From NCBI RefSeq assembly GCF_006716425.1, contig NZ_VFOZ01000002.1, positions 186,001 to 250,000 of the forward strand: a stretch of DNA of 64,000 nucleotides. The letters run 5' to 3'. This DNA is from Actinoallomurus bryophytorum (lineage in GTDB: Bacteria; Actinomycetota; Actinomycetes; Streptosporangiales; Streptosporangiaceae). The notes under the pieces were generated by a model. It was not told the origin of the DNA and searched no databases. It was given only the letters and a program-made list of their open reading frames with translations. Shown piece after piece: positions 8,869-24,643 of this stretch (positions are counted from its first letter, which is position 1; each line of letters starts with the position of its first letter). The translations under genes were made by a program, and so were the position numbers.

Positions 8869-9564
8869 ATGAGGGAAGACCGTGACGGGTGGAAGGTCGT
8901 TTCCGACCCGTCGGCATGGGTCGGCATCGTCTTCGTCGACATTGACGGCACCCTCGTACCGGCCCCCGGCTCCGCTGTCCACGTAGCCCGATATCTGGGC
9001 ACGGAGGAGGAGATGGCCAAGGCCGAGGCGGCCTACGCGGCCGGTCTATTGACCAATCCCGAGATCGCTGCGGTGGACGCGCTCGCATGGGCGGGCCGCA
9101 CCGAACGGGAGATCGACGACTGGCTGACCCAACTGCCACTCGTCGACGGGATCGCGGAGACGGTCCAGTGGTGCCGTGCTCATCGTCTGCTGCCGGTACT
9201 GGCCACCCTGGCCTGGCAGCCGATCGGGAAGCATCTCGGGAAAAGGTTCGGGTTCGCCGCCTACTGCGGACCTGAGCTGGAAACACTCGACGGGTCCTTC
9301 ACCGGCCGAGTGCGGGCCACCTTCGATGAGTTCGGCAAACGCGACTTCGCGCTGCGCTACGCGGAGAACCTCGGCTTCGGCCCGTCCCAGTGTGCCGCCA
9401 TCGGCGACAGCCGGTCGGACCTGCCGCTGTTCGACGAGGTCGGCCTCAGCGTCGCCTTCAACGCGGACCAGCAGGCGCGTGACAGGGCCTCGACGACGGT
9501 GGACGGCGGGGACCTATGGGCCGTGACACCGCTTCTGGCGGATTGGCATCAGCGCATTCGCTGA
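8869..9564 (+). CDS. HAD-superfamily phosphatase, SerB-like
   Basis: A 231-residue cytoplasmic hydrolase. The nucleophile motif VDIDGTL lies near residue 25, a helical cap follows, and the metal motif GDSRSDLPLF is near residue 185. The substrate is unknown; SerB-like members dephosphorylate small phospho-metabolites. It lies 7 bp after the tartrate-type dehydrogenase and may be co-transcribed. It ends at a bidirectional hairpin shared with the opposite gene. Confidence 0.85.
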   Translation: MREDRDGWKVVSDPSAWVGIVFVDIDGTLVPAPGSAVHVARYLGTEEEMAKAEAAYAAGLLTNPEIAAVDALAWAGRTEREIDDWLTQLPLVDGIAETVQWCRAHRLLPVLATLAWQPIGKHLGKRFGFAAYCGPELETLDGSFTGRVRATFDEFGKRDFALRYAENLGFGPSQCAAIGDSRSDLPLFDEVGLSVAFNADQQARDRASTTVDGGDLWAVTPLLADWHQRIR

Positions 9565-14196: not shown

Positions 14197-14720
14197 GTGC
14201 GTCGGGTCGGCCGTGTGCCGGTAGGACGGGCAGCGTGCCGGGTTGTGAGGCAACCTGCGCGGTTCGGAGGTCCGTCAGCGGAGAAGATACTGGGGGCGTT
14301 GCCGGTGGCTGCCCCGTTGCAGTTCCCGGTTGAGGATCCGGGAGATCACGATGAGGCGTGCCCGGTGCGTGATGTGGCCGAGCTGACCATGGGCAGGTGA
14401 TCGAGGCGCTGGTCGCGAACCGGTTGACCTCGCCCCGCCCATTGGTGCATGTGCAGGGGGTGGGCGCGGGGACTGGGCGGTTCGGTGAGGCTCTGGGATG
14501 GGTCCTGAGCTGCTCAGCCGATCGGATCGGGCCGGCGCTGGACGCGATCGTCGTGCACCTGGACCGGACCGCTGAGGGCGGTTGGGATGGCGGCGATCGG
14601 AGCGTTCCGGATCGAGGTCATCCGAGTGCACTGGGACCTGACCTCGATCTTGATGCACGGCCAGTACGAGCAGACCGAGGACGGGCTCGCCGCTCCCTGG
14701 ATTCGGTCACCCCCAAGGAC
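14197..14720 (+). pseudogene. IS1634-type transposase remnant, N-terminal part
   Basis: Family text is scattered over shifted frames: CPVRDVAELTMG, VIEALVANRLTSPRPLVHVQG, then VIRVHWDLTSILMHGQYEQTEDG and a trace of GHPKDR. At least three frameshifts; the catalytic remainder is missing and an IS982-like piece is joined on. Confidence 0.7.
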
Positions 14721-14749
14721 CGCGCGATCCCGTGCTCGAAAATCCACGC

Positions 14750-15235
14750 GGCCCGCAGCCGCACCTTCTCCCGTCTGGCCCACCCCGAAGCGGACAAACC
14801 GCCATCACCGGGACCTCATGACTTGTTCGCACTGACCGGCGCGAAGGCCGACGAACGTGAAACCCTCCGCGACATGCTCGACACCACACCCGACGTCCAG
14901 GCCGCCCATCCACGACAAACGATCATCGCCGACAAGAACTACTACGGCCGACAGCTCGAGCACGACCTCACCGAACGTGACCTGAAGCTGCTGCGCCCGG
15001 CCCGCAAAGGCGAGTCCGAACGAGCCGGCGCGCACCTGTTCAAACCGCTCCGGCAGATCATCAAGTCGATCGACCAAACCCTCAAGGGCCAACTCGACCT
15101 GGAACGACACGAAGGCAAGAGCCCAGCCGGGGTGACCGTCCGGGTCCTCCTGCGCATCCTCGCATTACCGCCGCGATATGACACAACGACAAAACCGGGC
15201 AACCCGTCAAACGATCCCTGAATCGCCTACGATCA
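14750..15235 (+). pseudogene. IS982-family transposase remnant, C-terminal part
   Basis: Shows FALTGAKADERETL, TIIADKNYYGR, LLRPARKGE, LFKPLRQIIKSIDQTLKGQL and LERHEGK. Near 15165 a lost A shifts the frame. The expected Trp of the AIWHN motif is now TGA (15179-15181), and an extra A follows near 15222. It is non-functional. Confidence 0.75.
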
Positions 15236-15563: not shown

Positions 15564-16937
15564 TCAGGCCAGGAGAAGTGCGGAGTCCCAGGTGGTCGCC
15601 GGGGGGCCGCCGCGCGCGTAGGCGTGCAGGGCGAGCGCGATGCCCGCGGCTCCCTCCAGGAAACCGGCCCGGTCCGGTGCCACGTCTGCACCGGCTCCCG
15701 CCGCGTAGCGGAAGCCGAACGGCGCCTCGGGATCGAAGCAACCGGCGACGCGGCGGGCGAGCCCGTCGACGGCCCCGTCGAGATCCTCCGCACCGTCGTC
15801 GGCGGCGATCAGCCGGGTCATGTGCAGCATGCCGGCCCAGCCGTGGCACAGCCCGGCGTCGACCACCCCCCAGGTGTCCCACGGACGTGCGAGCGTGGCC
15901 CGCAGCACCGACACCGCCGCGCGTCGCCACGCGGAGTTGTCCAGGGCGATACCCGCGAGCTGGATCGCGCGGGCGATGCCCGGCGATCCATAGCACCAGC
16001 TCGGCCGGTCCGGCGCCACCTGGTGTTCGTGGTGGCGCCGGTCAGGGACGTCGACGAGCTCGCGCAGGGTCACGACGGTCGGCCACGAGCCCCCGGAAAG
16101 CCGGTCCAGCAACCAGGTGACGATCCGCTCGATCGCCTCCTCCTGGCCCGGGAGGCGCAGGCCCTCGCGGTGGGCGATGGCGAGCAGGGCCAGCGGGCCG
16201 GCGATCCCGTGGGCCAGGCCCAGGTTGAAATGGCCGTCGCCGGCGGAGGTGTCCCGGATCGGAGCGTGGGTGACCCACCAGCCGGGCACCCGGACGCCGC
16301 CGACCTCCACGTCCTGGGTGAGAGCGATCAGGCAGTCCACAGCGTCCGCAGCTGCGCCGTCGCCCTCGCCTCCCGCCAGGAGCAGCCGGCCCAGACCGGC
16401 GAGTCCCTGGACGATGTCGTAGACGGCGAAAGCGGTCCCGGGCCGGCCGGCGGCGATCCGTCCGGTCTCGTCGCGGGTGAGATCGCGGACGGCGGCCCGT
16501 ACGGCCGGCAGGGCACGGTCCATCAGGCTCGCGTAGTCGCCGGGCCGGCTGGCCGCGGCACGCGTGGCGAACACCACCGCGGGCAGGCCGGCGAACAGGC
16601 CACCACCGCCGGACATCGCCTCCTTCGCCGCGACGGACAGGTACGCGTGGGTGCTCCGCCGGTCGCCGAGCTCCGCGTGCAGGAGGGCCACGCCCGGACA
16701 GCCCTCATTGAGGGCGCTCGGATGCCAGATCAGGGATTCCCGGCCGCCGGGAGACCGGTCGACAGCGGTCCCGGTGATCCGCATGACGGCCTGCGGGTCG
16801 GCGATCCGCCGGGCCACCTCCCCGACGATCGACTCCGCCTCCGCCCTGACGGCCGTACCGCTCGTCTCGCCCCCGGACGCGTCGGCCCTGACGGGCTCCG
16901 ACCCGACCGTGCCCGTGCCGCGTTCGTCCGCCGTCAC
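15564..16937 (-). CDS. LanC-like lanthipeptide cyclase 1
   Basis: A protein of 457 residues. The alpha-barrel cyclase carries LAHGIAG (near 242), Zn ligands Cys315 in WCYGSPGIA and Cys364-His365 in CHGWAG. It should catalyse Michael addition of Cys to dehydroamino acids in the core peptide. GTG at 16937, preceded by GAGGGGA, lies 11 bp after the LanB stop, so the two form a leftward operon. An N-terminal ~100-residue extension precedes the barrel. A second cyclase gene lies across the promoter, which is unusual for one class I precursor. Confidence 0.9.
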   Translation of the reverse strand: MTADERGTGTVGSEPVRADASGGETSGTAVRAEAESIVGEVARRIADPQAVMRITGTAVDRSPGGRESLIWHPSALNEGCPGVALLHAELGDRRSTHAYLSVAAKEAMSGGGGLFAGLPAVVFATRAAASRPGDYASLMDRALPAVRAAVRDLTRDETGRIAAGRPGTAFAVYDIVQGLAGLGRLLLAGGEGDGAAADAVDCLIALTQDVEVGGVRVPGWWVTHAPIRDTSAGDGHFNLGLAHGIAGPLALLAIAHREGLRLPGQEEAIERIVTWLLDRLSGGSWPTVVTLRELVDVPDRRHHEHQVAPDRPSWCYGSPGIARAIQLAGIALDNSAWRRAAVSVLRATLARPWDTWGVVDAGLCHGWAGMLHMTRLIAADDGAEDLDGAVDGLARRVAGCFDPEAPFGFRYAAGAGADVAPDRAGFLEGAAGIALALHAYARGGPPATTWDSALLLA

Positions 16938-16948
16938 GTCGTGTCCCC

Positions 16949-19918
16949 TCACTTCGCGTGCCTCTCCCGGTCCCACAGTGCCTGCAGAGCCCCCCGTGTG
17001 ATCGCATACGAGACGCCCTCGCCGTCCGGTGCGGCTCCGACGAGCCGGTTGTGGTGCATGTGCAGCAGCGCGGGAAGGGGCGTGGGCCGGTTCAGCGAAC
17101 GAATCAGGCGGCCGTACTCCGCGACGGCCGGCCTGCGGCGTGCCCAGATCGCATCGAGGCGCGGATCGACCTGCCCCTCGACGACCGGGATCGCGGTCCG
17201 GCGTACCGCCTGGAACGCAGAGTGGTGCTCGTTCTTGGGGAAGGCGTGCAGGAACCACTCCCGCCAGTCCGGCGCGTCGAAGCCGCGCATCAGGTCCGCG
17301 TAGTTCGCGGCGGCGAGCAGCTCCGGGCGCAGGTCGAGCCGCAGTCCCAACTGCTCGATCACGGCCTCGCTGTCGGCCTGGAACAGCCGCTCGGCCGCCT
17401 CCAGCGCCTCCGGCCCGCCGTACCGCTCGACCTCCGGCTCGTACGTGTCGAGCATCAGCGTACGGGCGAGCCCCGCCTCGCACAGCCGCGCCGCCCATTG
17501 GTGCACCAGCGGCATGACCTCGCGGTTCAGCCCGTCCGGGTCACCCTGGAAGCGGAGTCGCAGGTGCGGGCCGGGATCGAAGTACCGCATGAAGAACCAC
17601 CGGTCGACGCAGGAGGGTAGCGCGGCGCGCAGCACGGGCAGAGAGCGGGCGATCAGCTCTCCGTGCCGGTCGGCGGAGCAGTACAGCTTCGCGAACAGCC
17701 ACTCACCGCCCGGGTGGTGGACGTACGGGCGGCGCCGCACCACGGCCCGCGTTCGGACGGCCGGATCGGGCGTATCGGAGGTCAGCGTGACGACGAGCTC
17801 CCCGGCGCGGCCGTCCGCCCAGCCCGCGCCGAAGCCCTCGCCACCCGGCGGCTCGACCAGGAGAGTACTCTTGCGGCGGCCGAGTTCGTAGCGGAGGATC
17901 CGCCGGTGCAGCGTGGCGTCCAGATCCAGGCCGATCCGGTTGTCTCCGTTGGTCATGAAGACCTCGGCGGGCACCCGCCAGCGTTCGCGCCAGGCGTCGA
18001 GACGGCGTTGCCACTCCCGGTCCGGCACAGCGGTGTCGACGAGGTCGAGCGAGGGACGCCAGGTCGCCGGGGCCATGATCGTCCGGCCGTGCCGGACACG
18101 CGGTAGGAACGGCAGCATCGCGTCGAGGTCGCCCCAGGTCCACGCGGCGCACGCGCGGTGACGCGCGTCGCTGACGTCGTAGAGGAAACGGGCCACGTCG
18201 GGAGCGACCTCGCGCAGGACGAGCATGTGGATCGTGGTCGGAACGATCTCCGTGCCGCGGCTCAGCGACTGGAGGAAGAGCCGTCCGTCCGCGGAGCCGA
18301 CCGCGAGGTCGTCCAGGTCGACCACCGAGGGATCGCCGGGGTCCGCGAACCTCCCGACCGGCAGGCTGTGGGCGGTCAACCGTGGCACACGGGCCACGTT
18401 GGCGACCCGTGTCCAGTTGGCCTGGAAGGTGAGTTGCGGCTGGGGAATCTTGGCGCCGGACAGGAGCTGGGCGGTCTGGTCGCGCAGATCGTCGAGGAGG
18501 TACGCGAAACGGCCGCTCAACGCGCCGGCGCGGCGTGAGAGGGGCATGGTCGCCAGGGCGATGCGGAAGTCACCGGCCTCCAACGCCGGCGCCGACGCGG
18601 CCAGCACGTGGATCCCGAGCTCCAGCACGGACGGCACCCGCCCGTCGTCGTCGTCCGCGAGCCAGTCGATCATCGCAGCGTCGAGCTCGACCTCGTGGGC
18701 CCCGTCGAGCAGCGCACGCTGGGTGAGCTCGCCGAAAACGCGGTCGCGGTATCGGTTCGGCTCCGCGCGGGGCGCGCTGCGGGCCGAGGTACGGTAGCCG
18801 GCCGGGGTGCCGAGCCCCGCCTCCGGATCGAGAAGTTCCTTCACCGGGACCAGCCGCCCCGTGCCGTACCGGTCGACGAAGTCATCGTGGTAGGCGCGCA
18901 TGTGGGGTACGGCGCGGTCAGGAGGGGTGATGCGGGTCAGGATCGCGGCGGTCGACTCGACCTCCTCGGCGACCGCCCACGGCAGTGTGATCTCGTCATC
19001 GAGCCGCAGGTCGACGTGGGGAGCGTGCTGTTTCTCCCCGAGCCGCCGGGTCACGCGGAGGACCTCATTCCACGCCGGAAGCCCCCCACCGACGGGCGTC
19101 CTCGCGTAAGCGTCCAGCGCGGCGCCGGTCTCTTCCAGGTCCGCCGCCGCCTCGGCCGGAAGACGGTCGAGGACGTGCTGGATCGGGTCGGCGTCGTCGG
19201 GGGGCATGAGATCGGTGAGCAGGGCGTACCGCTCGACGAGTTGCATCAGCATCCGCTCGACCGCCTCCGGCGAGCCCTGCGGGAAGGCCGTGAGCAGGTG
19301 TCCGGCCAGGTCCGTGAACCGCACCGGCCGACGAGCCCGCTCCAGCACCTCGTCCACCACCCGGGTGCGGCGTACGGAGACCTCGATCGCCGGGCCGTCG
19401 TCACCTACGGGCAGGTGCGGCACCACGATCCGGTCGCCCCGCGCGAAGGCCAGGCCGTTGCGGACGACATGGAGGCGCCGCACGATCTCCGGCCGGCGTT
19501 CCCAGTCGCGTACGAGCGTGTGCAGCCAGCCGACGTCCGGCCGCGCGCTCTTGCGGTGGCCGTCGCCGAAGGACGTCTTGACGGCGTCGCCGAAACGCGC
19601 CTCGGAGACGCCGGCCATGATGCCGAAGGGCGTGGACCGGGTCGCCATGCGAAGCACGTAACGGGATACCGAGAGCACCGCGCGCCGCAGCTTCTTCGGA
19701 TCGACCGGGCGGCCGGCCTCCAGCGCGTCGAGCGTGTGCGCCAACGACGGGCTGGATACCGCGATCGCCTCCCGGACCAGCGGGTCGGCGATGATCGAGC
19801 GCAGATATCCGGCGGGGTCGTCGCCGTCGCTTCGGGTCCGCGCCGCCGTCTCCGCCGGGAGCACGCTCATCCGCACCGTCGCCCGGTCGGCGGCCTTCAG
19901 CCTCGGCATTTTTGTCAT
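16949..19918 (-). CDS. Full-length class I lantibiotic dehydratase (LanB)
   Basis: A protein of 989 residues. The glutamylation domain spans roughly residues 20-640 (LSVSRYVLRMATRSTPFGIM near 90 is conserved). The elimination (SpaB_C-type) domain is at about 680-970, with WFFMRYFDPGPHLRLRF and RTLMLDTYEPEVERYGG. It uses glutamyl-tRNA to activate Ser and Thr of the precursor, then eliminates glutamate to give Dha and Dhb. Presence of both domains in one chain argues for class I lanthipeptide rather than split thiopeptide enzymes. ATG 19918 has GGAGAG 5 bases upstream. It is divergent from the precursor gene. Confidence 0.94.
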   Translation of the reverse strand: MTKMPRLKAADRATVRMSVLPAETAARTRSDGDDPAGYLRSIIADPLVREAIAVSSPSLAHTLDALEAGRPVDPKKLRRAVLSVSRYVLRMATRSTPFGIMAGVSEARFGDAVKTSFGDGHRKSARPDVGWLHTLVRDWERRPEIVRRLHVVRNGLAFARGDRIVVPHLPVGDDGPAIEVSVRRTRVVDEVLERARRPVRFTDLAGHLLTAFPQGSPEAVERMLMQLVERYALLTDLMPPDDADPIQHVLDRLPAEAAADLEETGAALDAYARTPVGGGLPAWNEVLRVTRRLGEKQHAPHVDLRLDDEITLPWAVAEEVESTAAILTRITPPDRAVPHMRAYHDDFVDRYGTGRLVPVKELLDPEAGLGTPAGYRTSARSAPRAEPNRYRDRVFGELTQRALLDGAHEVELDAAMIDWLADDDDGRVPSVLELGIHVLAASAPALEAGDFRIALATMPLSRRAGALSGRFAYLLDDLRDQTAQLLSGAKIPQPQLTFQANWTRVANVARVPRLTAHSLPVGRFADPGDPSVVDLDDLAVGSADGRLFLQSLSRGTEIVPTTIHMLVLREVAPDVARFLYDVSDARHRACAAWTWGDLDAMLPFLPRVRHGRTIMAPATWRPSLDLVDTAVPDREWQRRLDAWRERWRVPAEVFMTNGDNRIGLDLDATLHRRILRYELGRRKSTLLVEPPGGEGFGAGWADGRAGELVVTLTSDTPDPAVRTRAVVRRRPYVHHPGGEWLFAKLYCSADRHGELIARSLPVLRAALPSCVDRWFFMRYFDPGPHLRLRFQGDPDGLNREVMPLVHQWAARLCEAGLARTLMLDTYEPEVERYGGPEALEAAERLFQADSEAVIEQLGLRLDLRPELLAAANYADLMRGFDAPDWREWFLHAFPKNEHHSAFQAVRRTAIPVVEGQVDPRLDAIWARRRPAVAEYGRLIRSLNRPTPLPALLHMHHNRLVGAAPDGEGVSYAITRGALQALWDRERHAK

Positions 19919-19986
19919 GCAGCTCTCCGTGCACAGGAAAAGGATCGTATCGCGCCGTACCGTACCAGGGGATTTGTTCAGGATAT

Positions 19987-20091
19987 GTAAGCGTTCCCGC
20001 GCGTTCCCACGTTCGGTTTCCTCCTCGGCGAAGCCCGCCGTGCCGAGCGTAGAGCTGCGGTAAGCGATCGGTAAGCGATCGGTAAGCGCAC
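19987..20091. promoter_or_regulatory. Divergent lanB/lanA promoter region with tandem 11-bp repeats
   Basis: Three head-to-tail 11-bp units of GGTAAGCGATC occupy 20059-20091 (the third matches 9 of 11). A further GTAAGCG lies at 19987-19993, followed by two 10-bp GCGTTCCC units (19991-20008). An 11-bp period puts half-sites on one face of the helix, as in operators of SARP-type antibiotic regulators. The exact -10 and -35 boxes were not resolved. No SARP gene is in the window. Confidence 0.6.
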
Positions 20092-20155
20092 CCTGCCATG
20101 CTGCTCGGCGAGCCGCTCCGTTGCGGCTTTATCTGTATTGCAGAAAGGAATGTGT

Positions 20156-20368
20156 ATGCCCCCGTTGGCAACCCTGGAAATCGACGAGGACATCTTTGAC
20201 CTCGACATCGAATTGGTGCTGGAATCCGATTCTGTGACGCCGATACAGTCCTGCAGTGGTGGCGAAAGCACCTGCGGCACGCAGGTGTCCTGGAGCGGTA
20301 CCTGTGGCGGGACCCTGTGCAACTGCAGCGCCACATACGGGGCGATGGCTCCCGGCATGTGCTACTGA
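20156..20368 (+). CDS. Class I lanthipeptide precursor (LanA)
   Basis: A 70-residue precursor. The leader is acidic with the FDLDI box (residues 14-18), the LanB recognition motif of class I leaders. The C-terminal half is rich in Cys, Ser, Thr and Gly: six Cys at 33, 40, 50, 55, 57 and 69, and about 14 Ser/Thr after residue 23, ending in Cys-Tyr. Up to six (methyl)lanthionine rings are possible. AGAAAGGA ends 6 bases before ATG 20156; ATG at 20150 is an alternative. The cleavage site is not evident, and no leader protease is encoded nearby. The stop overlaps the second LanC start. Confidence 0.9.
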   Translation: MPPLATLEIDEDIFDLDIELVLESDSVTPIQSCSGGESTCGTQVSWSGTCGGTLCNCSATYGAMAPGMCY

Positions 20369-21534
20369 TTAGTGCGGCCCAGCGAGCCGTCGCCACGACC
20401 ATCGCGCGCGAGGTGGCGGCTCGCCTTGCCTCCGTCACGGACCGCGACGGCGCCGCCGCTGCCACGCGGCGGCCGGGCACTCGCTCCGACCACGCCGGGC
20501 AGGCGCAGCTCTACGCGGCGCTACACGACCGCGAGCCCCGCGCCGGATGGGACGCGACCGGCCATCGACTCCTGGAGAACGCGGTGACGAAAGCCGGGTC
20601 GGCCGGGCTCTTCAGCGGTGGGCTCGCCGGACTCGGCGTCGCGGCCGTACTCCTGCGGGGTCGCACCGGCCGCTACCGCGGTCTGCTGGAGAAGCTGGAC
20701 GCGGCCGTCGTGCCCATAGCGGACCACGACCTCATCAACGGAACGGCCGGTGCCGGCGTGTATGCGCTGTTGCGGGGCCGTCCGCCCGCGATCGTCGCGG
20801 TGACCGCCGCGCTGGCGGAGGCCGCCGCCGGTGACCCGCCCTTCTTCGTGCCACCGCACCGCGTTCCGCCGGCCTGGTCGCTGCCCGAGGGGTACGTCGA
20901 CTGCGGGCTGGCCCACGGCGCCGCCGGCCCCGTGGCCCTCCTCGCCCTGCTCACCGAGCAGGGCAAGCAGGCCGACCTGAGCGCCGAGCACGCCGAGCGG
21001 CCCGAGGTCCGCACACGCGCGCTCACCCGTGCGGCGGACTGGTTGCTGGACGCGGCCGAGACCGACGAGTGGGGCATCGCCTGGCCGGCCGGCCTGGCCG
21101 GCGATGACCGGATGCCCTCACCGCGCCGCGCCTCCTGGTGCTACGGCGTCCCCGGCATCGCCCGTGCCCTGTGGCTCGCCGGGCGGGCACTGGACGAACC
21201 CCACCACCAGAGCGTCGCCCGCGACGCGATGACCGCGCTGCTGGACGCCTCCGACGCCTGGGGCCTGGACTCTTCGCCGAACCTGTGCCACGGGATCGCG
21301 GGACTACTGCTGGTCACCGCGGCGTTCGCGGCCGACGACGCGCGATTCGCGCCCGCCGCGGAGGACCTGCTCGACCGGCTCGTCGATGCTTTCGATCCCA
21401 GCCTGCCGCTCGGCTTCGACGTGACCGGCCCCGGCCTGCTGACCGGCGCCGCCGGGATCGCGCTGACACTGCTGACGGTGACCGGGGACTCTCCCGCGGA
21501 CGACCCGGCCCTACGGCCGTTCCTGGTGGGCTGA
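20359..21534 (+). CDS. LanC-like lanthipeptide cyclase 2
   Basis: A 391-residue cyclase from GTG 20359, a start inside the precursor's last codons. Motifs are GLAHGAAGPVALL (near 183), Zn ligands Cys261 (SWCYGVPGIARAL) and Cys310-His311 (NLCHGIAG), and GAAGIALTL at the end. All catalytic residues are intact, so it is not a decayed duplicate. It is shorter than cyclase 1, lacking the N-terminal extension, and clearly diverged from it. It may close different rings or act at another stage (inference). Its stop overlaps the transporter start (TGATG). Confidence 0.88.
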   Translation: MLLISAAQRAVATTIAREVAARLASVTDRDGAAAATRRPGTRSDHAGQAQLYAALHDREPRAGWDATGHRLLENAVTKAGSAGLFSGGLAGLGVAAVLLRGRTGRYRGLLEKLDAAVVPIADHDLINGTAGAGVYALLRGRPPAIVAVTAALAEAAAGDPPFFVPPHRVPPAWSLPEGYVDCGLAHGAAGPVALLALLTEQGKQADLSAEHAERPEVRTRALTRAADWLLDAAETDEWGIAWPAGLAGDDRMPSPRRASWCYGVPGIARALWLAGRALDEPHHQSVARDAMTALLDASDAWGLDSSPNLCHGIAGLLLVTAAFAADDARFAPAAEDLLDRLVDAFDPSLPLGFDVTGPGLLTGAAGIALTLLTVTGDSPADDPALRPFLVG

Positions 21535-23471
21535 TGGAAGAAGGTGGCGTGAAACCGCCCGGCGACGAGCTGTTCGGATCCGGTATCCGGGTGTCGATCG
21601 GCCAGCTCCGGCATGAGGGCGCGGGACTGCTGGTCGGCTTTTCCACGATGGCGCGGGAGCTGCCGCGGCTCCTGGCGGCCACGATTCGTCTCGGGCGCGA
21701 GGCCGCGCCTCGCGCGCTCGCCGCCATCATCGTCGCGGAGCTCGTCGCCGGCGTCGGAACCGCGGTGACGCTCCTGTCGACGTACCGCGTGCTGGTGCCG
21801 CTGATGGCCGGTGGGCCGTCGCGGGACCGGGTCCTCGCCGCCGCGCCCGCGCTGGTTGCGATCGCCCTGGCCGCCGGTACGGCGAGTGTTATGCGGGCGT
21901 GCAGCAAGGCCGCGGCGAGCCGCCTTGGGCCCCGGGCCGAGCGCCTGGCGTACACACGGCTGCTCGAGGGTGCCGCGCAGGTGGAGCTCGCCGCTCTGGA
22001 GGACGCGGAGTTCCACAACCTGCTCGGGGCGGCCCGCCAGGGCACCCGCGCGACCCGGATCGCCCTCAGCAACGCCATCGCGCTGCTGACCGGGTTGACG
22101 AACCTGGTGGCCTCCGCCGGGGTCCTCACCGTGTTGCATCCGGTCCTGCTGCCGCTGCTCGCTGCGGGGATCGCACCCAAGGGCTGGAGCGCCGTACGCG
22201 CCGCGCGGGCCCGGTTCGCCTCGACCAAGCGTTACATGGACCTGACGCGCCAGCTCGAAGTCCTGGGCGACCTGCTCAGCGGCCCGAACCCCGGCCAGGA
22301 GATCCGCGCCCACGGCGTCGCGCCGTTCCTGCTGGAGCATTACCGGCGCCTATCGGCGGTGGCCGAGGAGGAACAGGAGCGCCTCGGCCGGGCTGAGGCG
22401 CGTAACACCCTCGTCGGTGACGCGCTGTCGGGCCTGGCCGGCCTGGCGACGTACGCCGCCCTCGGCGCGTTGCTGCTGACCGGAGCGGTGCCGCTCGCGG
22501 TGGCCGGAGCGGCGGTCATGGCCATCCGCACTGGGAAGATGAGCCTGACCGCACTCGTCATGTCGACGAACCAGATCTACGAACAGGGACTGTTCGTCCT
22601 CGAGTGGGAGCGAGCCTGCGCCGAGGCCGGGCGGCTGGCCATGCACACGGGCCACCTGGCATTGCCGCCGAGGGCGGTCGAGATCCGCGCCGAGAACCTG
22701 CGCTTCGCCTATCCCCACGAGACACGGCCCGCGCTCGACGGCGTCGACGTCGTCATTCGGCCGGGTGAGACCGTGGCGTTCGTCGGAGAGAACGGCTCCG
22801 GCAAGAGCACATTGGCCAAGCTGCTCATCGGCCTGTACCTGCCCCAGGGTGGGCAGGTGACCTGGGCGGGGGTCCCCATCTGGCACCTGGACCGGCGACG
22901 CCTGTTCGAACGGGTCGCCCTGGTGACCCAGGACTTCACCCGCTGGCCGTTCACCGCGCGGGTCAACCTGGCCATCGGCCGCAGCGAGCACGCCCGCGAC
23001 GACGCACGGCTGCGGTGGGCGGGGTGGACCAGCGGTGCGGACGCGGTGGCGGCGTCCCTGCCGGACGGCTGGGACACCCTGCTGGCGCGGGAGTTCATGG
23101 GGGGCACCGAACTGTCCGGCGGGCAGTGGCAGCGCATCGGCCTCGGGCGCGCCTGGTTCCGCGACGCGCCCGTCCTGGTCTTCGACGAGCCGACCTCGGC
23201 CCTGGACCCGCGTGCGGAGATCGAGGTCTTCGACAAGGTGGGGATGTTGGCCGCGCAGGGGCGGACGATCGTCCTCATCACCCATCGGCTGGCCTCGGTA
23301 CGGCGGGCGGACCGGATCTACGTCCTGGCACACGGAAAGGTCGTCGAGCACGGTACGCACCAGAGTCTGATGGACGCAGGTGGCGCGTACGCCGCGATGT
23401 ACCAGCTCCAGGCCGGCCAGTACGCGGAGACGACCTGGCGTCGGCACGGCACGGAAAGGACCTTCACATGA
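21534..23471 (+). CDS. ABC exporter, fused membrane and ATPase domains (LanT-like)
   Basis: A protein of 645 residues. The N-terminal ~350 hold the transmembrane domain (hydrophobic runs near 65-90, 100-120, 190-215 and 300-330). The nucleotide-binding domain has Walker A GENGSGKST near 418, signature LSGGQWQR, Walker B VLVFDEP and the switch His in LITHRL. It probably exports the modified peptide. There is no C39 peptidase domain, so it does not remove the leader. GTG 21549 is an alternative start. Coupled to its neighbours by overlaps on both sides. Confidence 0.9.
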   Translation: MEEGGVKPPGDELFGSGIRVSIGQLRHEGAGLLVGFSTMARELPRLLAATIRLGREAAPRALAAIIVAELVAGVGTAVTLLSTYRVLVPLMAGGPSRDRVLAAAPALVAIALAAGTASVMRACSKAAASRLGPRAERLAYTRLLEGAAQVELAALEDAEFHNLLGAARQGTRATRIALSNAIALLTGLTNLVASAGVLTVLHPVLLPLLAAGIAPKGWSAVRAARARFASTKRYMDLTRQLEVLGDLLSGPNPGQEIRAHGVAPFLLEHYRRLSAVAEEEQERLGRAEARNTLVGDALSGLAGLATYAALGALLLTGAVPLAVAGAAVMAIRTGKMSLTALVMSTNQIYEQGLFVLEWERACAEAGRLAMHTGHLALPPRAVEIRAENLRFAYPHETRPALDGVDVVIRPGETVAFVGENGSGKSTLAKLLIGLYLPQGGQVTWAGVPIWHLDRRRLFERVALVTQDFTRWPFTARVNLAIGRSEHARDDARLRWAGWTSGADAVAASLPDGWDTLLAREFMGGTELSGGQWQRIGLGRAWFRDAPVLVFDEPTSALDPRAEIEVFDKVGMLAAQGRTIVLITHRLASVRRADRIYVLAHGKVVEHGTHQSLMDAGGAYAAMYQLQAGQYAETTWRRHGTERTFT

Positions 23472-24643
23472 CGGTACTGTCGGCACTCGTCGGTGACGTC
23501 GACTACTTCTTCGAGAAGTACGTGGGAAAGGCGCCACTGCACCGGCGCGACGTCCTGCGGGACCTCGGCGCCTTCGTGTCGATCGAGGACATCGACCGGG
23601 TGATCACTGGAAGCGGGCTGCGGACACCCGGCGTCCAGTTGGCGAAGGACGGGGTCGTCGTCACACCCGACCGCTACGTGTCCCGGTCGACCCTCGGTTA
23701 CGCGGGCCTGAAGGACGTCGTCGACCCGGTCAAGGTCGCGCAGTTCTACCGGAACGGCGCGACGATCGTGCTGGGCACCGTCAACCTGCTCCTACCCCGC
23801 TTGCACGAGGTCTGCAAGGACATCGAGACGGAACTGGGCCATCCGGTCGACGCCAACATCTACGTGGCGCCGCCGGACACGCGGGCGTTCGACGTCCACT
23901 GCGACGCCCAGGACATCCTCGTCATCCAGGTCCACGGGACCAAGCGCTGGCACCTGTACGACGAGATCGTGCCGAACCCGGGCGGGGGAACGGTCGTCTC
24001 CGGCCTCGATCCCGACGCGCCGTCGTCGGTATGCGAACTGTACGAGGGCGACCTGCTGTACGTCCCGCGCGGCATGCCCCACCTGGTGCGTACGACCGGC
24101 TCGTCATCGGTGCACGTCACGATCAGCGTCAACACGATGACGTGGGCGGACCTGCTGCGCGAGCTGATCCAGGAGATCCTGCGCGCCGACGAGTTCGCCG
24201 TCCCGCTGCCCCTGGGCCGGAACGTCGCCGAGCGGATCGGGCCGATGGTCGGCCGGTACGGCGACCTGATCGCGTCGGCGCTGGCCGGCCGCGCCGGCGG
24301 GGACGCCCTTCACCGGACCCTTTACGGCCGGACCGCGTTCGGCGAGCCGGTCCGGGCCGGGCTCCTGCGACAGGCGGTGACCGGCACGCCTACCGGCATG
24401 CCGGATCGGATCCGCCTGCGCCCCGGGGTATGGCCGCTGGTAACGCTGGCCGAGGGCGCGGACGGCGCGCGGATCACGGTGGGGACCAGCGGTTTCCGCG
24501 TCTCCGCTCGGGTCGCCGAGACATGCCGGCGCCTGCTGGACGGGCCGCTGGCCGTACAAGAGATCTCCCCTGACCCCTCCGAGGCCGCGACGGTCGCGGA
24601 AACGCTGATCGGCCTGGGCATGTGTGCCGGTGAGGACGTGTAA
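23468..24643 (+). CDS. JmjC/cupin-type Fe(II)/2-oxoglutarate oxygenase
   Basis: A protein of 391 residues of the bacterial ROXA/NO66-like cupin group. The iron ligands are His and Asp of VHCDAQD (near 144-146) and a distal His in RGMPHLV (near 204). Conserved QVHGTKRWHLY lies between them. The C-terminal ~150 residues resemble the winged-helix tail of ribosomal oxygenases (tentative). In a RiPP operon it most likely hydroxylates a side chain of the core peptide (inference). ATGA overlap with the exporter shows it is the fourth gene of the rightward operon. Confidence 0.85.
   Translation: MTVLSALVGDVDYFFEKYVGKAPLHRRDVLRDLGAFVSIEDIDRVITGSGLRTPGVQLAKDGVVVTPDRYVSRSTLGYAGLKDVVDPVKVAQFYRNGATIVLGTVNLLLPRLHEVCKDIETELGHPVDANIYVAPPDTRAFDVHCDAQDILVIQVHGTKRWHLYDEIVPNPGGGTVVSGLDPDAPSSVCELYEGDLLYVPRGMPHLVRTTGSSSVHVTISVNTMTWADLLRELIQEILRADEFAVPLPLGRNVAERIGPMVGRYGDLIASALAGRAGGDALHRTLYGRTAFGEPVRAGLLRQAVTGTPTGMPDRIRLRPGVWPLVTLAEGADGARITVGTSGFRVSARVAETCRRLLDGPLAVQEISPDPSEAATVAETLIGLGMCAGEDV

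What the first reader, a model, noticed from the sequence alone, without database searches (positions are those of the whole stretch)
15564..24643. Compact class I lanthipeptide cluster with two intact LanC cyclases and a JmjC oxygenase
Directly seen: full-length LanB, two diverged LanC proteins each with all three Zn ligands, a 70-aa precursor with an FDLDI leader box and six Cys, a one-piece exporter and a JmjC/cupin HxD...H oxygenase, in two divergent operons. Established: class I systems normally use one LanC per precursor. Inference: the second LanC and the oxygenase give an unusual ring pattern and a hydroxylated residue. No leader protease, immunity gene or regulator is present.
Basis: partly seen in the sequence, partly recalled or inferred. 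Interest (0 to 1): 0.88.

Follow-up and report, generated by a model that had tools for sequence, protein, structure and literature searches.

The report
Lanthipeptide cluster with borrowed JmjC oxygenase
A soil actinobacterium carries a six-gene kit that should make a ring-laced peptide using two ring-closing enzymes plus an oxygen-adding enzyme of a kind better known for modifying ribosomal proteins; related species keep the same kit, but what it makes is still untested.

Summary
Window 15564-24643 holds lanC1-lanB on one strand and lanA-lanC2-ABC-JmjC on the other; the latter four genes overlap end to start. All six genes are intact in four other genomes (two of the window's own genus, two Nonomuraea), so it is a real, selected unit. 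The core CGTQVSWSGTC...APGMC is under stronger purifying selection than the leader. Both LanCs keep their metal and catalytic residues. LanC2 is not a recent copy of LanC1. The oxygenase has the whole ribosomal-oxygenase (NO66/MINA53/YcfD) fold, C-terminal winged helix included. Two relatives without a working JmjC both lack core Gln43, a weak pointer to the modified site. A second, different class I cluster type with one LanC and a shorter JmjC exists in two more genomes, so JmjC oxygenases are a recurring part of such clusters. Two-LanC clusters were in print by 2010; no paper found in the held library puts JmjC in a lanthipeptide cluster. Verdict: new variant of class I lanthipeptide biosynthesis; chemistry inferred, not shown.

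The parts
15564..16937 (-). lanC1, class I lanthionine cyclase, 457 aa, GTG start
   Evidence: PF05147 E 3.7e-42; NisC match E 2.6e-14; D174, H243, C315, C364, H365 invariant in 7 of 7
16949..19918 (-). lanB, full-length dehydratase, 989 aa; 11 bases upstream of lanC1
   Evidence: PF04738 and PF14028; best solved relative 5ehk E 1.3e-122 (recalled as MibB)
20058..20088 (+). 11-bp direct repeat CGGTAAGCGAT x2.8, candidate operator upstream of lanA
   Evidence: GTCAGCGATCGGTAAGCG kept upstream of lanA in both same-genus relatives; function not tested
20156..20368 (+). lanA precursor, 70 aa, FDLDI leader box, six-Cys core
   Evidence: clear matches in 7 of 341 family genomes, own included
20359..21534 (+). 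lanC2, second cyclase, 391 aa from GTG inside the lanA end
   Evidence: PF05147 E 1.2e-28; ligands invariant in 6 of 6; own clade
21534..23471 (+). one-piece ABC exporter, start overlaps lanC2 stop
   Evidence: PF00005 E 5e-26; 67-82% identical in the five best relatives
23468..24643 (+). JmjC_2 (ribosomal-oxygenase-like) Fe/2-oxoglutarate oxygenase with C-terminal winged helix, start overlaps ABC stop
   Evidence: PF08007 E 9.3e-20; model pLDDT 88; NO66 4ccm_B Z 27.1 over 369 residues

Best explanation
This is a class I lanthipeptide cluster. Shown from sequence: a full-length dehydratase, two intact cyclases, a precursor, an exporter and an intact JmjC oxygenase, in two divergent operons, conserved as a set. 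Inferred: LanB binds the FDLDI leader and dehydrates core Ser/Thr through glutamyl-tRNA. LanC1 and LanC2 then close (methyl)lanthionine rings on the same core, LanC2 probably taking a subset of rings or a stage that LanC1 does poorly. The JmjC protein, guided by its C-terminal winged helix, hydroxylates one core side chain; Gln43 in the invariant CGTQVSW stretch is the leading candidate. The ABC protein exports the peptide, and an unlinked protease removes the leader.
For: Six genes intact in 5 genomes including this one. + strand genes overlap end to start, tying JmjC and LanC2 to lanA. Core codons between two distant members: 16 synonymous to 6 nonsynonymous changes, leader 7 to 16. Cyclase and oxygenase active sites invariant. 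Ribosomal-oxygenase fold. JmjC recurs beside LanB-LanC in a second cluster type in G004 and G266. A JmjC enzyme, BipG, is a shown gamma-ornithine hydroxylase in a RiPP pathway (PMC12707348, passages). JmjC-minus relatives lack Gln43.
Against: No product, expression or enzyme data. The Gln43 link rests on two clusters and is not significant: 4 and 5 of 27 invariant core columns changed, overlap 2, about 0.7 expected; Ser58 to Thr changes in both as well. The LanC2-less relative keeps six Cys. The core lacks Arg and His, the residues that NO66, MINA53 and YcfD modify (recalled, and chain names). JmjC sits in different operons in the window's genus and in Nonomuraea.
Confidence: 0.65

Rival explanations
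1. LanC2 does not close rings on this core in a division of labour: it is redundant, or acts as a chaperone or partner for LanB, LanC1 or JmjC.
For: In G172 LanC2 and JmjC are both absent while six Cys remain.
Against: All five catalytic and metal residues are invariant in 6 of 6 LanC2; LanC2 persists in N. basaltis where JmjC is broken; the second JmjC cluster type has one LanC, so LanC2 is not a general JmjC partner.
Confidence: 0.3
2. JmjC acts on another residue (Val44, Pro, Tyr, Met, Asn/Asp or a Lan sulfur or beta carbon) or on a cellular protein, not on Gln43.
For: Only two JmjC-minus clusters; Ser58, and in one cluster each Gly41, Thr42, Val44, Trp46, also changed. Its fold family modifies ribosomal proteins.
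Against: Overlapping start with ABC, conserved linkage in two positions, and a second cluster type with JmjC beside LanC make a peptide substrate likelier than a ribosomal one.
Confidence: 0.35
3. The cluster in this strain is decaying: its flanks hold transposase remnants, and the precursor has a two-residue gap relative to its kin.
For: Transposase remnant at 14397-15221 (PF01609 E 3.6e-4, below cut-off); 2-residue deletion in the core.
Against: All six frames are open with intact active sites; the six Cys are kept.
Confidence: 0.08

Closest known systems
Microbisporicin/NAI-107-type actinobacterial class I lanthipeptides
   Same: Full-length LanB (closest solved relative 5ehk), separate LanC, FxLD-type leader, no protease beside the genes (last two for microbisporicin recalled).
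   Different: Unrelated core, two LanCs, JmjC instead of the halogenase and other tailoring genes (recalled).
Two-LanC cluster Frankia EAN1pec I (PMC3091789, passages)
   Same: Class I cluster with LanA, LanB and two LanC genes, noted in 2010.
   Different: O-methyltransferase genes are described for those Frankia clusters; no oxygenase mentioned in the passages seen; sequences not compared here.
Two-LanC clusters of G261, G293, G045 (L059, L061, L060)
   Same: LanB, LanC1-like LanC, second LanC, small Cys-rich precursor candidates.
   Different: Other precursors (FDLQ or FDMD boxes), no JmjC by tblastn.
BipG/BpmG of biphenomycin (PMC12707348, PMC12257519, passages)
   Same: JmjC oxygenase working on a RiPP precursor.
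   Different: Not a lanthipeptide; target is ornithine; sequence not compared here.
Ribosomal oxygenases NO66, MINA53, YcfD and B. subtilis YxbC
   Same: Same fold over most of the length (Z 27.1 to 19), same Fe ligands.
   Different: 17-20% identity; encoded in a peptide operon; no Arg or His in the conserved core.

Membership tests
Class I lanthipeptide biosynthesis | Full-length LanB with glutamylation and elimination halves | tested here: met
   PF04738 and PF14028, both full length
Class I lanthipeptide biosynthesis | Stand-alone LanC with Cys, Cys, His zinc ligands | tested here: met
   Two of them
Class I lanthipeptide biosynthesis | Leader plus Ser/Thr/Cys core precursor beside the enzymes | tested here: met
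   FDLDI box, 6 Cys and 11 Ser/Thr in the core from residue 32
Class I lanthipeptide biosynthesis | Thioether rings in the product | not testable with these tools
   No product
JmjC ribosomal-oxygenase (ROX) fold family | HxD...H iron site and lysine for 2-oxoglutarate | tested here: met
   Invariant in 22 of 22; role of the lysine recalled
JmjC ribosomal-oxygenase (ROX) fold family | JmjC, helical middle and C-terminal winged helix | tested here: met
   Model pLDDT 88, aligned 1-390 to NO66
JmjC ribosomal-oxygenase (ROX) fold family | Ribosomal protein substrate | not testable with these tools
   None
RiPP recognition element (RRE) | Strand-strand-strand-helix-helix-helix order binding the leader | tested here: inconclusive
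   Model residues 314-389: four strands, helix 347-356, short helical turn, helix 370-382, strand 386-389; no RRE model or binding test run
Recent lanC duplication | LanC1 and LanC2 are sister groups | tested here: not met
   Two separate 100/100 clades in a 42-row tree; deep joins weak (65/81)

The most novel reading that the evidence does not exclude
A whole ribosomal-oxygenase protein has been recruited as a leader-guided lanthipeptide tailoring enzyme: its winged helix reads the FDLDI leader and its JmjC site hydroxylates Gln43 (or a neighbour), a residue type outside the known targets of this fold family, on a core whose rings are closed by two specialised cyclases, one possibly making a reversed ring from the first Cys. 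JmjC-lanthipeptides would then be a wider group with at least two cluster types (window type and G004/G266 type).
Probability: 0.3. Interest if true: 0.8.

Novelty: new variant of a known kind. Interest (0 to 1): 0.6.

Why it matters
It would add JmjC hydroxylation to the lanthipeptide toolbox and show how a ribosome-type oxygenase changes substrate. The natural series (both enzymes; JmjC cut by a transposon; both missing) gives ready-made comparisons for two open questions: why a cluster would keep two LanC cyclases, and how JmjC enzymes find a peptide target.

Tried and rejected
LanC2 as a recent duplicate of LanC1: rejected by the 42-row tree (L031, L032 and L042 rows left out as copies of L060, L061 and L100).

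LanC2 adding a ring of its own: not supported, since G172 lacks it and keeps six Cys. That LanC2 and JmjC were lost in G172 rather than never there: favoured (97/98 support) but the opposite is not rejected (AU p 0.088).

JmjC homologues as a general lanthipeptide marker: of 48 other matches listed, 38 were fetched and 1 of 38 (L106, genome G004) has LanB/LanC by tblastn at 1e-4; 10 were not fetched. In my first pass I had looked at 18 and found none; the G004 case came out of the re-check and raised my confidence from about 0.6 to 0.65.

Weak precursor hits: L063-L066 (E 0.001-0.007) had no LanB, LanC, ABC or JmjC match within their 1.8-3.1 kb, taken as chance. Six genomes at E 0.001-0.0096 were not followed up.

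Operator repeat as a regulon: one other site with 1 mismatch in the genome, beside an aldolase-like frame and a tiny ORF; led nowhere. First JmjC model from 4 rows was poor (pLDDT 44) and not used. Whole-library paper searches for the core string gave 0 papers. Papers listed but not opened that could bear on the point: PMC10783134, PMC9096227 and PMC10951976.

Full report
What is there. The window is G000:C2:186001-250000 of a 9.47 Mb, 3-contig genome. Two same-genus genomes share contig lengths with Actinoallomurus iriomotensis NBRC 103681 and Actinomadura sp. DC4, so the host is an Actinoallomurus-group actinobacterium (inference). The minus strand carries lanB and lanC1, 11 bases apart; the plus strand carries lanA, lanC2, an ABC exporter and a JmjC oxygenase, each start overlapping the stop before it. 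Pfam and NCBIfam support every enzyme call; lanA has no family hit.

Is it real. Using the precursor alignment, a scan of named genomes gave 6 loci: A. iriomotensis, sp. DC4, Nonomuraea solani, N. glycinis, N. basaltis and, distantly (36%), Streptomyces sp. BR123. All six genes are intact in five genomes including this one; gene order is the same in the window's genus, while in Nonomuraea JmjC follows lanC1 instead of ABC. Core codons between A. iriomotensis and N. glycinis: 18 identical, 16 synonymous, 6 nonsynonymous; leader: 8, 7, 16. That is selection on the product.

Cyclases. LanC1 and LanC2 both keep Asp, His and the Cys-Cys-His zinc set. In a 42-row tree LanC2 is its own 100/100 clade, apart from the LanC1 clade; it falls weakly (65/81) with the second LanCs of other two-LanC clusters (L059, L060, L061) and the LanCs of L054-L058. 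At least 7 of 297 sampled family genomes have two LanC matches within 10 kb on one contig (read; a lower bound, because 6 candidates per genome were scored and the list was cut). So two-LanC clusters recur, with unlike precursors, and were seen in Frankia in 2010 (PMC3091789, passages).

Oxygenase. The JmjC_2 protein keeps H144, D146, H205 and K159, invariant in 22 homologues. The model (22-row alignment, pLDDT 88) aligns over residues 1-390 with NO66 (Z 27.1, 7.2 A over 369 residues; the large rmsd suggests shifted domains) and with MINA53, YcfD and YxbC. Its C-terminal domain is a winged helix roughly in RRE order; an RRE survey noted that bacterial JmjC (PF08007) homologues of RRE-bearing eukaryotic proteins lie in RiPP-like contexts (PMC12710340, passages). 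BipG, a JmjC protein, is a shown gamma-ornithine hydroxylase in biphenomycin biosynthesis (PMC12707348, PMC12257519, passages).

Comparative clues. N. basaltis keeps LanC2, but its JmjC stops matching after residue 90, where a DUF772 transposase frame abuts, and its core reads CG-Y-SWSGTC. G172 has neither LanC2 nor JmjC in the whole genome and its core reads CTTNVSYSGTC. Of 27 core columns invariant in the five JmjC-intact members, only Gln43 and Ser58 changed in both. This is a lead, not proof: chance would give about 0.7 shared changes. All 7 cores keep six Cys. In 4 of 7 (three Nonomuraea and G172) no Ser/Thr lies just before the first Cys, and in G172 none lies between residue 2 and that Cys, so it is free, in a disulfide, or in a reversed ring.

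A second JmjC type. Genome G004, of the window's genus, has on a 5.2 kb contig a LanB end, a LanC and a 303-aa JmjC_2 protein (PF08007 E 1.3e-20, 29% identical to the window's) without the winged-helix tail. G266 has a complete relative: precursor with an FDLD box, ABC (51% identical), LanB, one LanC and JmjC (67% identical to G004's). JmjC in class I clusters is therefore recurrent and does not depend on LanC2.

Print. No paper in the held library joined JmjC with a lanthipeptide cluster in the searches made, nor holds the core string. The two papers with both words are the RRE survey and the biphenomycin paper. The 2020 lanthipeptide survey (PMC7268733, outline, passages and section 8) lists PF03171 oxygenases but not JmjC in the parts read. 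Supplements and subscription papers were not seen.

Verdict. A real and conserved variant of class I lanthipeptide biosynthesis. Gene content and enzyme integrity are shown; division of labour between the cyclases, hydroxylation and its site are inferred.

Noticed in passing
window 20058-20088: 11-bp direct repeat CGGTAAGCGAT x2.8 upstream of lanA, kept in two same-genus relatives; the spacing resembles SARP-type operators (recalled).
   Followed up: partly
L105 6759-6777 (G000:C2:550758-550776): Second copy of the repeat pair with one mismatch elsewhere in the genome, upstream of a very short open frame.
   Followed up: partly
L129 3845-11346; L106 1-3809: A second class I lanthipeptide cluster type with one LanC and a short JmjC_2 oxygenase right after lanC, in genomes G266 and G004.
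   Followed up: partly
L100 6510-7775: Subtilase gene (PF00082) directly after the ABC gene in the G172 cluster, a candidate leader protease that the other clusters lack nearby.
   Followed up: no
L101 1157-2075: N. basaltis holds a second, broken copy of lanA and lanC2 on another contig.
   Followed up: partly
window 8869-9561: HAD-like hydrolase 94% identical over 231 aa to one beside lanC1 in A. iriomotensis (L067 4193-4885); in the window about 6 kb with a P450 frame and a transposase remnant lies between.
   Followed up: no
L059, L060, L061: Other two-LanC class I clusters with Cys-rich precursor candidates bearing FDLQ or FDMD boxes; L061 has two candidates.
   Followed up: partly
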